Positions 26,265 to 56,247 of a stretch of DNA of 64,000 nt are shown here, piece after piece. The translations under genes were made by a program, and so were the position numbers. The stretch lies in contig NZ_CP022600.1 of assembly GCF_002952215.1 (NCBI RefSeq), positions 2,542,001-2,606,000 on the forward strand, given 5' to 3'. The stretch's first letter is position 1; the number at the start of each line of letters is the position of its first letter. Source of the DNA: Porphyrobacter sp. HT-58-2. Lineage in GTDB: Bacteria > Pseudomonadota > Alphaproteobacteria > Sphingomonadales > Sphingomonadaceae. The notes under the pieces were generated by a model, which was not told the origin of the DNA, did not search any database, and saw only the letters and a program-made list of their open reading frames with translations.

Positions 26265-26633
26265 TTACGCCTTGGGCGCGGTCGCCTTGCGCTCGACGAT
26301 ACGTGCGCTCTTGCCGGTGCGGCCGCGCAGGTAATAGAGCTTGGCGCGGCGCACCACGCCGCGGCGGACCACGGTGATGCTCTCGACGATCGGCGAGTAG
26401 AGCGGGAAAACGCGCTCGACGCCTTCGCCAAAGCTCATCTTGCGCACAGTGAAGTTCGAACCCATGCCGCGGTTCGAACGGGCGATCACGACGCCTTCAT
26501 AGTTCTGAATACGCTCGCGGTTGCCTTCCTTCACCTTCACGCCGACGCGGACGGTGTCGCCTGCGCGGAATTCGGGGATGTCCTTGCCGGACTTGGCGAT
26601 TTCTTCGGCTTCAATCTGCTGGATCAGGTTCAC
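26265..26633 (-). CDS. rplS: 50S ribosomal protein L19
   Basis: L19 lies at the subunit interface. The N-terminal (V)[16 protein letters not shown], the [17 protein letters not shown] region and the [12 protein letters not shown] end are diagnostic; 122 residues. The start is a GTG at 26633, chosen because the family begins MNLIQQ. It overlaps the trmD 3' end by 23 bases, so translation of the two is coupled. It is the last gene of the operon and is followed by a strong terminator. Confidence 0.97.
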
Positions 26634-27462
26634 TGGTCCGGTTCCTTCGTTTTTGCCGCGCGCCAGAGGCAGACTGGACCCGAGCACCCTCATGGCGCTC
26701 CCACAAGTCCGGCCTGCGTGACCGTGTGTCGTCCTCGCTCCTTGCCTTGCGCCAAGCAGCGATCTTCGCATGATCCCCCGATCGCAGCACTTCGGGGATC
26801 GTGCGCCCTTCCCATTCCTGAGGTCGGGTATAGTGCGGGTATTCGAGAAGGCCGTTTTCGTACGACTCTTCCGCCCCGCTCAAGGTGGCGCCCATTACGC
26901 CGGGAATTAGGCGAATGCAAGCGTCAAGGATGGTGAGCGCCGCCATCTCGCCGCCCGATAACACGATGTCGGCGAGGCTGACCTGCTCGATTGCGGGCCG
27001 GGCTTCGAACAGGCGTTCATCGAACCCCTCGAACCGCCCGCACAGGATGATGACGCCGGGGCCTGCCGCAAGCTCCCGGATGCGGGCTTGCGTGATGGGT
27101 TTGCCGCGCGGGGTCATGGCGAGGACGGGGCGCGTTACACCTTCCCCGTTCGTGTCGAGCGAAGTCGAGACACCTTTCTGTGTGTCACTGTCTCTCGACT
27201 GCGCTCGAGACGAACGGAGTTTTTCCGGCTCCTGCACGCTATCCAAAGCCCGCGCCAGCACATCGCACTTGAGCACCATCCCCGCCCCGCCGCCTGCGGG
27301 GGTATCGTCGACGGTGCGGTGCTTGTCGGTGGCAAAGTCGCGGATCTGCACCGTCTCGCAGGCCCACTTGGCCTCCGCCAGCGCGCGCCCCGCGATGGAA
27401 TGCCCGAGCGGCCCGGGGAACATCTCCGGGTAGAGCGTGAGGATGGTGGCGGTGAAGGTCAT
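26611..27462 (-). CDS. trmD: tRNA (guanine37-N1)-methyltransferase, with in-frame repeat insertion
   Basis: TrmD makes m1G37 in tRNAs reading CNN/CGG/GGG codons and prevents frameshifting; it is essential in most bacteria. Seen: [29 protein letters not shown] (residues 41-63), [15 protein letters not shown], and the knot region [17 protein letters not shown], all intact. Length 283 exceeds the usual 240-255 because residues about 82-106 are encoded by a 72-base palindromic repeat (27146-27217) related to one at 51729-51803. The insert falls before MTPRGKP, in a segment of variable length in the family. The ATG overlaps the preceding small ORF stop (ATGA). Confidence 0.93.
27146..27217. repeat. 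Palindromic repeat inside trmD, family A copy 1
   Basis: Arms 27146-27173 and 27190-27217 (28 bases each) match as inverted repeats at 25 of 28 positions around a 16-base loop. Arm consensus begins CCGTTCGTGTCGAGCG. The same arms recur at 51729-51803. The element is 72 bases, a multiple of three, and is read through in frame by trmD. Confidence 0.92.
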
Positions 27463-51728: not shown

Positions 51729-51803
51729 CCGTTCGCCTCGAGCGAAGTCGAGAGGCCTTCACCCCGGCGCAACAAGTGTCTCGACTGCGCTCGACACGAA
51801 CGG
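51729..51803. repeat. Palindromic repeat between trpF and trpB, family A copy 2
   Basis: Arms 51729-51756 and 51776-51803 (28 bases each) are inverted repeats, mismatching at a few positions, around a 19-base loop. Arm sequences match those of the repeat inside trmD; the loops differ. Ends 13 bases before the trpB ATG. Confidence 0.92.
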
Positions 51804-53997: not shown

Positions 53998-54845
53998 ACT
54001 GGTTCACCCGCGTCCGCAACTCGCTGGGCTTCGCGCCCGAGAAAAAGTCCACCGAGAAGGACCTGTGGATCAAGTGTCCCTCGTGTCAGGAGATGCTGTT
54101 CGTCGCCGATTACGAGGCGAACCTCTCGGTCTGCCCCAAGTGCGACCATCACGGGCGGATCGGGGCCGATGCGCGCCTCGCGCTGCTGCTCGATCCGGGG
54201 TTCGAGGTGCTGCCGCTGCCCAAGGTCACCGAAGACCCGCTCCAGTTCAAGGACACCAAGAAATACACCGACCGCCTCAAGGCGGCGCGCGCTGCCAACC
54301 CGCATGAAGACGCCTTCGTGGTCGGATCGGGCTTCATTGCCACCCGCCCGGCGGTGGTCGGCGTGCAGGATTTCGGCTTCATGGGCGGCTCGATGGGGAT
54401 GGCCGTGGGGCAGGCCTTCTGCGACGGCGCGCAGAAGGCGCTGGATCGCGGCTGCGCCTATGTCGTGGTGACCGCGGCGGGCGGTGCGCGGATGCAGGAA
54501 GGCATTCTCAGCCTCATGCAGATGCCGCGCGCGACTGTGATGACCCGGCGGCTGAAGGCGGCCGGGCTGCCCTATATTGTGGTGCTGTCAGACCCCACCA
54601 CCGGCGGGGTGACCGCCAGCTACGCCATGCTCGGCGATATCCATATTGCCGAGCCGGGCGCGCTCATCGGCTTTGCCGGTCAGCGCGTCATTCAGGACAC
54701 GATCCGCGAACAGCTGCCCGAGGGCTTCCAGCGCGCCGAGTACCTGCACAAGCACGGCATGGTCGACATGGTCGTGCCGCGCCGGGAGTTGAAGGCGACA
54801 CTGGGTCAGGTGCTGGACTATCTGACACCGGTGAAGGCGGCGTAA
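53994..54845 (+). CDS. accD: Acetyl-CoA carboxylase carboxyltransferase subunit beta
   Basis: AccD is one half of the carboxyltransferase that makes malonyl-CoA, the substrate FabD uses. The N-terminal zinc ribbon (Cys28, 31, 47, 50) and the carboxyltransferase core [20 protein letters not shown] and [12 protein letters not shown] are complete. Length is 283 residues. The ATG overlaps the trpA stop, as is common in Alphaproteobacteria. Confidence 0.96.
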
Positions 54846-54854
54846 TACGAAAAC

Positions 54855-54933
54855 GTCATCCCAGCGAAAGCTGGGACCTAGGGCGTCAAATGCGGCGCTT
54901 GCCGCTTGAGGCCCCAGCTTTCGCTGGGGTGAC
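54855..54933. repeat. Palindromic repeat between accD and folC, family B
   Basis: Arms GTCATCCCAGCGAAAGCTGG... (54855-54879) and its near complement (54909-54933) flank a 29-base loop. Each arm itself contains the small palindrome CCAGCGAAAGCTGG. Such CCCAGCGAAAGCTGGG elements are widespread between genes in Sphingomonadales. Confidence 0.88.
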
Positions 54934-54942
54934 GAGGTAGGC

Positions 54943-56247
54943 ATGAAAGATTTCGGCACATCCGACGATCCGCGCGTGCAGGCGCAGCTTGATCGCTTGG
55001 CCCGCCTGAGCCTGCCGCAGGGGCGGCTCGGCCTCGACACCATCCGCGCCCTGATGGAGCGCCTCGGCAATCCGCACCGCAAGCTGCCGCCGGTGTTCCA
55101 TGTCGCGGGGACCAACGGCAAGGGCTCGACCTGCGCCTTCCTGCGGGCGATGCTGGAGGCCGAGGGCTACCGCGTCCATGTCACCACCAGCCCCCATCTG
55201 GTGCGCTACAACGAGCGCATCCGCCTCGCAGGAGAGCTGATTTCCGACGCAATGCTCGCCGAGGTGCTGGCCGAGGTGCTGGATGCCAGTGAACAGGGGG
55301 GCGAGGACCTGGGACCGAGCTTCTTCGAAGTCACCATCGCCGCCGCCTTCCTGGCCTTCAGCCGCACGCCTGCCGATGCCTGCGTGGTCGAAGTCGGCAT
55401 GGGCGGGCGCTTTGACGCCACCAACGTCCTCGAACCCGAGGCGCTGGCCGCCTGCGGCATCGCCGCACTCGGCCTCGATCACGAACGCTTCTTGCTGGCA
55501 CCCGAAGAGGGCGTGCCGACCGAGCCGATGGCACGGATTGCCTTCGAGAAGGCGGGGATCGCGAAGAAGGGCGTTCCGCTGGTGACGCTGAGCTATCGCC
55601 CCGAATCCAACCACGAGGTGATCGCCGCTGCCCGGCGCGCAGGTGCGCCGCTGGCGATGCAGGGCGATGCATGGGACTGCCGCCCCGGCGCGATGATGAC
55701 CTACCGCGATCAGATGGGCGCGTTCACCCTACCCCACCCGGCCCTCGCGGGCGCGCATCAGGTGCTCAACGCCGGGCTCGCGCTCGCCATGCTCCAGCAT
55801 CAGGACAAGGTCCGGGTTGGCCCGATGGCGATGTCACTGGGGCTGCGGCATGCCCGCTGGCCTGCGCGGATGCAGCGCCTTTCGCCCGGTCCGCTGGTGG
55901 GCGCACGCGAGGTGTGGCTCGACGGCGGGCACAATCCGCAGGCGGGCGCGATGCTGGGTGCGCACTTTGCGGGTCAACGCCTTCACCTCGTCATCGGCAT
56001 GATCGAGGGCAAGGACCCGGCCTCGCTTATTGGCCCGCTCGGGGACGCGCTCGTCACCATCACCGCCGTGCCGGTGCCGGGGCACGAATGGCATCCGGCG
56101 AGCGCCTTCGGCCCTGAGGCGCACCCCGCCCCCGATGTGCCAAGCGCGCTGGCGATAATCCCCGACGACGGCCTGCCGATCCTCATCGCCGGATCGCTCT
56201 ATCTCGCGGGCGAGGTGCTGCGGCTGAACGATGAACTGCCGGACTAG
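54943..56247 (+). CDS. folC: Bifunctional dihydrofolate/folylpolyglutamate synthase
   Basis: FolC adds glutamate to dihydropteroate and to folates. It belongs to the Mur ligase superfamily: P-loop GTNGKGS (56-62), the TTSPHLVRYNERIRL segment, and LDGGHNPQAG near the C-terminal domain. Length is 434 residues. The accD-folC order is conserved. It converges with the AmpG-like gene, overlapping by four bases. Confidence 0.95.
   Translation: MKDFGTSDDPRVQAQLDRLARLSLPQGRLGLDTIRALMERLGNPHRKLPPVFHVAGTNGKGSTCAFLRAMLEAEGYRVHVTTSPHLVRYNERIRLAGELISDAMLAEVLAEVLDASEQGGEDLGPSFFEVTIAAAFLAFSRTPADACVVEVGMGGRFDATNVLEPEALAACGIAALGLDHERFLLAPEEGVPTEPMARIAFEKAGIAKKGVPLVTLSYRPESNHEVIAAARRAGAPLAMQGDAWDCRPGAMMTYRDQMGAFTLPHPALAGAHQVLNAGLALAMLQHQDKVRVGPMAMSLGLRHARWPARMQRLSPGPLVGAREVWLDGGHNPQAGAMLGAHFAGQRLHLVIGMIEGKDPASLIGPLGDALVTITAVPVPGHEWHPASAFGPEAHPAPDVPSALAIIPDDGLPILIAGSLYLAGEVLRLNDELPD

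What the first reader, a model, noticed from the sequence alone, without database searches (positions are those of the whole stretch)
27146..27217. Palindromic repeat inserted in frame within the essential gene trmD
A 72-base inverted repeat whose 28-base arms also occur between trpF and trpB (51729-51803) lies inside trmD. It adds about 24 residues near 82-106, in the segment before MTPRGKP, a variable loop in TrmD. The reading frame and all TrmD motifs on both sides are intact. This looks like a mobile small palindrome that gave rise to new protein sequence, as described for Rickettsia palindromic elements, but of a different family. Whether the protein tolerates it as an exposed loop can be tested.
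Basis: partly seen in the sequence, partly recalled or inferred. Interest (0 to 1): 0.85.

Follow-up and report, generated by a model that had tools for sequence, protein, structure and literature searches.

The report
Palindromes repeatedly invading one TrmD loop
A small mirror-image DNA repeat sits in frame in the gene for an essential tRNA enzyme, and in relatives of this bacterium the same loop holds unrelated repeats of at least four other families, so the loop looks like a recurrent landing site where selfish DNA becomes protein.

Summary
27146-27217 is a 72-nt pair of inverted REP-like repeats (family A) inside the only trmD found in the genome, in frame, TrmD motifs intact. Family A has 40 places in this genome; 8 lie in frame inside recognised genes (trmD, valS, uvrC, carA, glyS twice, two carboxylase genes).

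The larger finding is the site. Of 103 same-genus genomes whose trmD loop could be read, 68 have a short loop (29-32 aa, GMV to TPRG), 31 an expanded one (59-78 aa) built from one of five unrelated palindrome families (A 4, B 8, C 11, D 7, E 1), and 4 are unclear. The sister trmD (Erythrobacter colymbi) carries C, not A. Loops of glyS and valS are also multi-family.

The family in a trmD tends to be common in that genome (0 of 20,000 label permutations as strong). Some alleles moved between species by recombination. The loop is modelled with low confidence between a helix and a strand.

In-frame palindromes are known (Rickettsia RPEs, intragenic REPs), so this is a new variant of a known kind. 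It bears on a question left open for Rickettsia: hotspot for different elements, or one diverged insert.

The parts
26611..27462 (-). trmD, tRNA (guanosine(37)-N1)-methyltransferase, 283 aa, only TrmD match in the genome
27130..27231 (-). expanded loop (about residues 78-111) between helix 66-77 and strand 113-122 of the model
   Evidence: AlphaFold2: block means of pLDDT 57, 41, 50 for residues 81-110, against 79-94 in 15 of the other 16 blocks up to residue 190 (one is 59); the model draws a low-confidence helix at 80-89. Relatives without insert have 29-32 aa from GMV to TPRG
27146..27217 (.). family A palindrome: inverted pair of REP-like units, read in frame
27146..27173 (+). REP unit 1, variable stem dinucleotides TG/CA
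27174..27189 (.). variable spacer between the two REP units
   Evidence: spacers differ widely among own-genome copies and among trmD copies of relatives
27190..27217 (-). REP unit 2, variable stem dinucleotides TC/GA (a rare arm type: 3 of 78 parsed arms)
51729..51803 (.). second family A copy in the window, intergenic between trpF and trpB
54854..54934 (.). family F palindrome (begins CGTC) between the genes ending at 54845 and starting at 54943; by eye the same family sits in frame in glyS and valS of relatives
   Evidence: relatives

Best explanation
27146-27217 is a translated REP doublet. Two inverted, hairpin-forming REP units with a variable spacer, of a kind present at 40 places in this genome, lie in a loop of TrmD between a helix and the strand that leads to the MTPRG motif. 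The arms carry no stop codon in the frames used, the insert keeps the frame, and the added peptide is tolerated as a loop. The same loop is occupied by four other unrelated REP-like families in relatives, because it is one of few places in an essential protein where such an insert is tolerated. Alleles of the loop also pass between species by homologous recombination. SHOWN: identity, copy number, frame, five families at one site, the same kind of thing at glyS and valS, match to genome content, one recombinant tract. INFERRED: translation of the insert, tolerance as the reason for the hotspot, transposition as the origin, exposure of the loop. UNKNOWN: the enzyme that moves the doublets.
For: 40 places of A in the genome, 8 in frame in genes (identities). 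Five families in the trmD loop of 103 same-genus genomes: A 4, B 8, C 11, D 7, E 1, unclear 4, none 68; 45 further named loci: A 3, B 2, C 5, D 5, E 3, none 27 (that set was partly fished with a peptide of the insert, and is not a fair sample). trmD tree without the loop: at least 40 changes of state over 144 rows, 34 of presence/absence. AU test with the 46-species clade plus 5 outgroup rows rejects one origin for A (p 0.004), C (6e-65), D (3e-4) and for all 17 inserts (1e-7), not for B (p 0.29, 2 rows). trmD family against the genome's own arm counts, trmD copy subtracted: 0 of 20000 permutations as high, n = 32 genomes. Reversed order of the B units in one species (L046). All 53 expanded loops of the tree set are stop-free in the TrmD frame, but the parser could find only such loops; beside them one insert off frame (G048) and one split over contigs (G025) were seen. 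Model: low confidence in the insert between two confident elements of a TrmD fold. glyS and valS sites.
Against: Family labels are clustered on the trmD tree (43 changes with the unclear group, shuffled mean 51.2, 0 of 200 as low), so part is inheritance. Left flanks in the 46-species clade cluster by insert state beyond what the rest of trmD predicts (0 of 2000 shuffles as high, small effect 0.036), and 0 of 17 inserts sit in the D-S-A allele carried by 25 of 29 empty ones; so many of the counted changes may be exchange of old alleles, not new insertions. The four A inserts of this clade share a first unit of the rare TC/GA type, which suggests shared ancestry or selection. No target-site duplication could be shown. 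No Y1-type REP transposase found in this genome. 3 of 32 carriers have no other exact arm of their trmD family by the pattern used, and the C and D patterns also hit by chance in some genomes (reversed-pattern controls). Low pLDDT may reflect unalignable inserts; parts of the second domain are as low. No protein or RNA data.
Confidence: 0.8

Rival explanations
1. One ancient insert in the common ancestor, inherited vertically and diverged into what now look like different families (the reading preferred for Rickettsia RPE-4/6/7).
For: Same position in all; the clade's inserted alleles share flank features and four A inserts share a rare first-unit type.
Against: Families A-E have unrelated arms, and for 29 of 32 carriers of A-D the same arm recurs elsewhere in the genome (E was not counted); 68 of 103 genomes have no insert; unit order of B differs in L046; one origin rejected for A, C, D and all inserts.
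Confidence: 0.08
2. The palindromes are kept in trmD because the mRNA hairpin regulates or stabilises the transcript, not merely because the loop tolerates them.
For: Predicted folding of the 160-nt region is stronger with insert (mean -84.8, n 53 with the 4 unclear) than without (-67.1, n 95) although G+C is lower (0.65 against 0.69, no shuffled control). trmD, glyS and valS all act on tRNA.
Against: Most species lack it; family B adds almost no stability (-70.0) and the unclear inserts none (-63.4); the frame is preserved; the trmD site is a loop between secondary-structure elements.
Confidence: 0.15
3. The hotspot is a DNA-level target preference of REP movement (for example insertion next to or into an older palindrome) rather than a protein-level filter.
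For: A doublet plus what reads as an eroded B in one loop (L116, 113 aa); families replace each other at one spot.
Against: Five families with different sequences would need one shared target; the hot sites of trmD, glyS and valS share no sequence by eye (not tested systematically).
Confidence: 0.2
4. Artefact: assembly error, or a segment removed before or during translation.
For: Two draft genomes break at the loop (G025, G028) and one single-contig genome is off frame in the insert (G048).
Against: The window genome is one contig; inserts recur in many separate assemblies including named strains (E. colymbi JCM 18338, E. donghaensis DSM 16220, E. longus DSM 6997); 31 of 33 genus inserts seen are intact, in frame and stop-free.
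Confidence: 0.03

Closest known systems
Rickettsia palindromic elements (RPE), in particular RPE-4/6/7
   Same: Palindromes in frame inside conserved genes, in solvent-exposed parts; different RPE groups at or near the same site of orthologs; target genes overlap in kind (excinuclease C, tRNA synthetases, a tRNA methyltransferase) (PMC3767692, section 12 read).
   Different: There a common origin of the inserts was favoured and insertion into hotspots called 'still not negligible'; here the families are unrelated. Family A cores are 59-92 nt, at the short end of the 68-192 listed there. Hosts are Sphingomonadales, not Rickettsiales. RPE sequences were not compared here.
Intragenic GTAG and CGTC REPs (BMC Genomics 2013, PMC3733652)
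   Same: REP doublets of 20-30 encoded residues inside genes, including tRNA synthetases of an Erythrobacter; heterodimers prevail in most families; different REPs at about the same site in recB of two Xanthomonas (section 15 and part 1 of section 17 read; passages).
   Different: Family A bears neither tag (B-E not checked systematically). That paper found REPs in other genes of one functional category at different sites. Family F of this work begins CGTC and fits that group by description only.
REPINs mobilised by RAYT transposases
   Same: Two inverted REP units with a spacer, dispersed in the genome.
   Different: No Y1_Tnp (PF01797) hit in this genome; 7 of 113 genus genomes have one.
ERIC and other small mobile sequences carrying ORFs in enterobacteria (PMC2759123, passages)
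   Same: Small repeats fused in frame with genes.
   Different: Other sequences, other hosts; no recurrent multi-family site in the passages seen.

Membership tests
Rickettsia palindromic element (RPE) | palindrome in frame inside conserved protein genes | tested here: met
   trmD and 7 further in-gene copies
Rickettsia palindromic element (RPE) | host in Rickettsiales | tested here: not met
   host is in the Erythrobacter/Porphyrobacter group, judged from same-genus handles that equal named contigs
Rickettsia palindromic element (RPE) | length about 105-150 bp, or 68-192 for RPE-4/6/7 | tested here: inconclusive
   cores 59-92 nt, overlapping only the lower range
Rickettsia palindromic element (RPE) | ATGAC motif of RPE-4/6/7 | tested here: not met
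   absent from the 72 nt on either strand
CGTC or GTAG REP superfamily | CGTC or GTAG tag at one end of each unit | tested here: not met
   the 40 A cores begin CCGTTCG-like and end CGAACGG-like, except worn or partial ends in L011, L015, L017, L018
REP doublet (REPIN-like structure) | two inverted units, each with its own stem, separated by a variable spacer | tested here: met
   155 of 156 checked stem positions paired, shuffled mean 92.5, maximum 113; 7 fully paired stem types and 1 with a mismatch; 78 of 80 arms parsed
REPIN in the strict sense | RAYT (Y1-type transposase) in the genome or beside the repeats | tested here: not met
   0 hits of PF01797 at E <= 10 in own genome, rings in 10 of 14 control genomes; other transposase types were not searched
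MITE | terminal inverted repeats with target-site duplication | tested here: inconclusive
   inverted ends present; no duplication visible in empty and occupied valS sites, flanks diverged
TrmD | equivalog model score and fold | tested here: met
   NF000648 279.8 bits against cut-off 220; TIGR00088 240.5 against 195; best Foldseek match TrmD 3ief

The most novel reading that the evidence does not exclude
Certain loops of essential tRNA enzymes are standing niches for selfish DNA: once a loop of trmD, glyS or valS can hold a REP doublet, unrelated REP families repeatedly enter it and replace one another, and the alleles spread between species, so that protein loops in a whole bacterial family are drawn from a shared pool of ready-made, stop-free palindromes.
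Probability: 0.5. Interest if true: 0.75.

Novelty: new variant of a known kind. Interest (0 to 1): 0.62.

Why it matters
In Rickettsia the question whether different palindromes at one protein site mean a hotspot or one diverged insert was left open (PMC3767692). Here the families are clearly unrelated and many species exist in occupied and empty states, so the question becomes testable: how often selfish DNA enters essential proteins, whether loops filter it by protein tolerance or by DNA target, and whether the added peptides change enzyme function. Several carriers are named culture-collection strains, and TrmD occurs naturally in this group with five different inserts and with none.

Tried and rejected
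Searched for a Y1-type REP transposase in the genome: none. Rfam scan of the window at gathering cut-offs: only a tRNA. Looked for target-site duplications at valS and in 40 copies: not resolved. First covariation script parsed no arms because of a wrong pattern; repeated correctly. A scan of the 80 named trmD loci (941 kb) with strict patterns for A, B and F found 8 doublets outside trmD, none called as lying in another gene, and only 4 in trmD; the patterns were too strict for many copies and the gene call was crude, so it is background only. The idea that the frames used are the more hydrophilic ones was dropped: family F is read in its two most hydrophobic frames, and A and C partly in the least hydrophilic (set). 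The RNA-hairpin idea was weakened by family B (there the 95 empty rows were entered twice, which leaves the mean unchanged).

Rows dropped: 110 of 114 genus genomes had a TrmD match; 103 loops were read. The other seven: G025 and G028 (contig ends in the loop; G025 reads as family D on both sides), G048 (family C, off frame in the insert), G057 (off frame upstream, no insert), G066 (contig end), G073 (partial match, no insert by coordinates, not fetched), G082 (weak match, not fetched). Three rows (G089, G019, G020) have a stop inside the aligned stretch; their frames from the start are 267, 257 and 257 aa, so it lies in the C-terminal part and not in the loop. In the tree four 'unclear' rows were left out of the count of 40 changes. 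In some searches only the 30 best-scoring loci were read, of 108 and 113 genomes with a match (some of the valS matches are weak).

Full report
What is there. The 72 bases at 27146-27217 form a palindrome inside trmD (- strand, 27462..26611, 283 aa). The arms recur at 51729-51803 between trpF and trpB. A search of the whole 3.28-Mb genome gives 70 match rows at 40 distinct places (28 loci there, 12 fetched). Written side by side the copies show two inverted units of about 28 nt with a spacer that varies in length and sequence. Within each unit two positions of its own stem vary together: 78 of 80 arms could be parsed, 155 of 156 positions pair, against a shuffled mean of 92.5 and maximum of 113, with pair types TG/CA 38, CC/GG 31 and six rarer ones, one of them with a mismatch. 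In 0 of 38 doublets with both arms parsed do the two arms have the same stem type. So family A is a REP doublet, and a heterodimer wherever it could be parsed.

In genes. Of the 40 places, 8 lie in an open frame with coding-type base composition on both sides and within a recognised gene: trmD, valS, a propionyl-CoA carboxylase alpha-like gene, uvrC, carA, a carboxyl transferase gene, and glyS twice (families; the two carboxylase genes score below the NCBIfam cut-offs and are named from Pfam domains; coding composition was judged by eye). The first unit is read in three different frames ([27 protein letters not shown] types); the second is read as a [13 protein letters not shown] peptide in 7 of the 8 and as SLDFARDER in uvrC.

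The trmD loop in relatives. Same-genus search: 110 of 114 genomes have a TrmD match. The loop was read in 103. From GMV to TPRG it is 29, 30 or 32 aa in 68 genomes. In 31 it is 59-78 aa and contains one of five unrelated palindromes: A 4, B 8 (CTGAGCxTGTCGAA type), C 11 (CCTCCCC..GGGGAGGGGGACC type), D 7 (GGGGTTGGGGATGGG type), E 1. Four are unclear (37, 43, 43, 55 aa). Two more inserts were seen but not counted: G025 (D, split over contigs) and G048 (C, off frame within the insert). Family labels rest on arm patterns, with E and 'unclear' assigned by eye. Forty-five further named loci (deduplicated) give none 27, C 5, D 5, A 3, E 3, B 2; that set was fished in part with a peptide of the insert and is not a fair sample. 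Named carriers include Erythrobacter colymbi (C), E. donghaensis (D), E. longus (C), Erythrobacter sp. WG (A), Citromicrobium bathyomarinum (D), Pelagerythrobacter marinus (E), Erythrobacter sp. SD-21 (B), Novosphingobium lentum (A) and N. capsulatum (C); E. dokdonensis and E. oryzae have none. One metagenome locus, L116, has a 113-aa loop with an A doublet followed by what reads as an eroded B.

How often. A tree of trmD without the loop (148 rows) needs at least 40 changes among none, A, B, C, D, E, and 34 changes of presence/absence, the four unclear rows left out; strongly supported branches alone force 20 changes for 'none', 7 for A, 7 for B, 9 for C, 9 for D, 2 for E. A and B are scattered as widely as shuffled labels (7 changes for 7 rows, 10 for 10); C, E and 'none' are clustered, and all labels together more than shuffles (43 against a mean of 51.2), so part of the pattern is inheritance. 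In this tree the sister of the window's trmD is that of E. colymbi, which carries C (support 95). A careful tree of 51 rows (46 species around the window plus 5 outgroup rows, two of which carry D) needs 17 changes, 15 of presence/absence. Holding the carriers of the 46 together is rejected for A (p 0.0038, 4 rows), C (6e-65, 8), D (0.0003, 3) and all 17 inserts (1e-7), not for B (p 0.29, 2 rows).

Not all changes are new insertions. L045 and L055 share a stretch of about 240 nt around the insert that is nearly identical (60-nt windows 0.93-1.00), while the windows upstream (0.75, 0.87) and all but one downstream (0.75-0.90, one 1.00) are lower: the insert moved by recombination. In the 46-species clade the 27 nt left of the loop are more alike within an insert state than the rest of the gene predicts (0 of 2000 shuffles as high; the effect is small, 0.036), and 25 of 29 empty alleles read D-S-A at the junction against 0 of 17 inserted ones. 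The four A inserts of the clade also share the rare TC/GA first unit. The number of fresh insertions is therefore smaller than the number of changes on the tree. A floor that does not rest on any tree is five families, plus a reversed order of units for B (L046) and a second reading frame of the first A unit in N. lentum.

Source. For 32 genomes whose trmD carries A-D (G025 and G048 included, the one E carrier left out), the counts of arms of each family in the whole genome (copied by hand), less the trmD copy, were compared with the family in trmD. The match is stronger than in all 20,000 permutations of labels. Carriers of A have 13-102 other A arms, the 28 other carriers a median of 0.5; medians for carriers against the others are 23.5 and 16.5 for B, 5 and 2 for C, 3.5 and 0.5 for D. 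Three carriers (G090 B, G095 D, G081 D) have no other exact arm. The reversed-pattern control is almost empty for A and B but not for C and D in several genomes, so the C and D counts contain chance hits. Related genomes are not independent, so the permutation overstates significance.

Other genes. For glyS, 108 of 113 genomes match, and open frames in the rows listed run from 235 to 1103 aa, most 680-950 (short ones are fragments or broken frames). Of the 30 best loci, the site after WLCEEGIV holds, by DNA patterns or by eye: A 2, B 5, D 3, E 1, a sixth family F (PAKAG...ASAGMT) or worn forms of it 11, other palindromic-looking inserts 4, none 2, not displayed 2. Two further glyS sites also vary. 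For valS, the site of the window genome's insert was read in 29 of the 30 best loci: A 3, B 3, F 1, C 1, another 1, empty 20. These 30 are the best-scoring, hence biased to inserts like the query's. All three genes that I followed into relatives because of an own-genome insert (trmD, glyS, valS) proved multi-family sites; uvrC, carA and the carboxylases were not followed.

Structure. AlphaFold2 on 53 aligned TrmDs gives a TrmD fold (best match 3ief; mean pLDDT 71.7, the second domain with low blocks of 41-68). Residues 78-111 lie between helix 66-77 and strand 113-122, with pLDDT block means of 57, 41 and 50 for residues 81-110 and a low-confidence helix at 80-89. In the four alignments printed, solved TrmDs have only a short connection at this place. 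Exposure of the loop follows from this position by inference; it was not measured, and low confidence may partly reflect that the inserts do not align.

How it most likely works. REP doublets spread in these genomes by an unknown activity; no Y1-type transposase is found in the window's genome, 7 of 113 genus genomes have one. Most insertions in genes are presumably lost: 32 of 40 copies are not in a recognised gene. A few loops accept a stop-free peptide of some 25-50 residues. Of 33 forward frames of 11 typed consensus arms only 2 hold a stop, and neither is a frame seen in the genes. B is read in nearly all cases as VRPELVEG and STSSART types in trmD, glyS and valS, but frames are not chosen for hydrophilicity in general: F is read in its most hydrophobic ones. 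Once such alleles exist, recombination spreads them and families replace one another.

Against what is known. In-frame palindromes are well known in Rickettsia and were reported for REPs elsewhere, including tRNA synthetases of an Erythrobacter (PMC3733652, section 15 and part 1 of section 17 read; passages). For Rickettsia, different RPE groups at or near the same sites of orthologs were described and a common origin favoured, with hotspots 'still not negligible' (PMC3767692, section 12 read). PMC10969869, PMC2759123 and PMC2229807 were seen in passages. One of the original RPE papers was asked for and is not held. Nine literature searches listed no paper that I recognised as reporting palindromes in trmD, or several unrelated families at one loop, in Sphingomonadales; most subscription papers are outside that library, and most listed papers were judged by title. 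The kind is known; the occupation of one loop of an essential enzyme by unrelated families, in many species, is the new part.

Noticed in passing
own-genome loci L001-L028, L239-L250: Every family A doublet with both arms parsed is a heterodimer: 0 of 38 have the same stem type in both arms although two types make up 69 of 78 arms. Heterodimer preference is noted without explanation in PMC3733652 (passage).
   Followed up: partly
L251-L280, glyS: Glycyl-tRNA synthetase beta is expanded in many genomes of this genus, with palindromic inserts at about three sites; two A copies in the window genome's own gene.
   Followed up: partly
own genome in-gene copies; PMC3767692 Table 1: tRNA enzymes and UvrC recur as hosts of in-frame palindromes here and in Rickettsia, which may hint at a shared property of these genes.
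   Followed up: no
window 54854-54934: Family F palindrome beginning CGTC between two genes (accD-like and folC-like by recall of their sequence); fits the CGTC REP group by description.
   Followed up: no
L185 (G048) and L183 (G057): trmD off frame within the C insert (G048) and upstream of the loop (G057) in single-contig genomes; sequencing error or real, not decided.
   Followed up: no
L045 and L055, trmD: Near-identical tract of about 240 nt around the B insert in otherwise diverged genes: recombination between species.
   Followed up: yes
L116, trmD (113-aa loop): A doublet plus an apparently eroded B doublet in one loop.
   Followed up: no
G019: Six Y1_Tnp matches in one genome, whose trmD loop is a short unclear insert; 106 of 113 genus genomes have none.
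   Followed up: no
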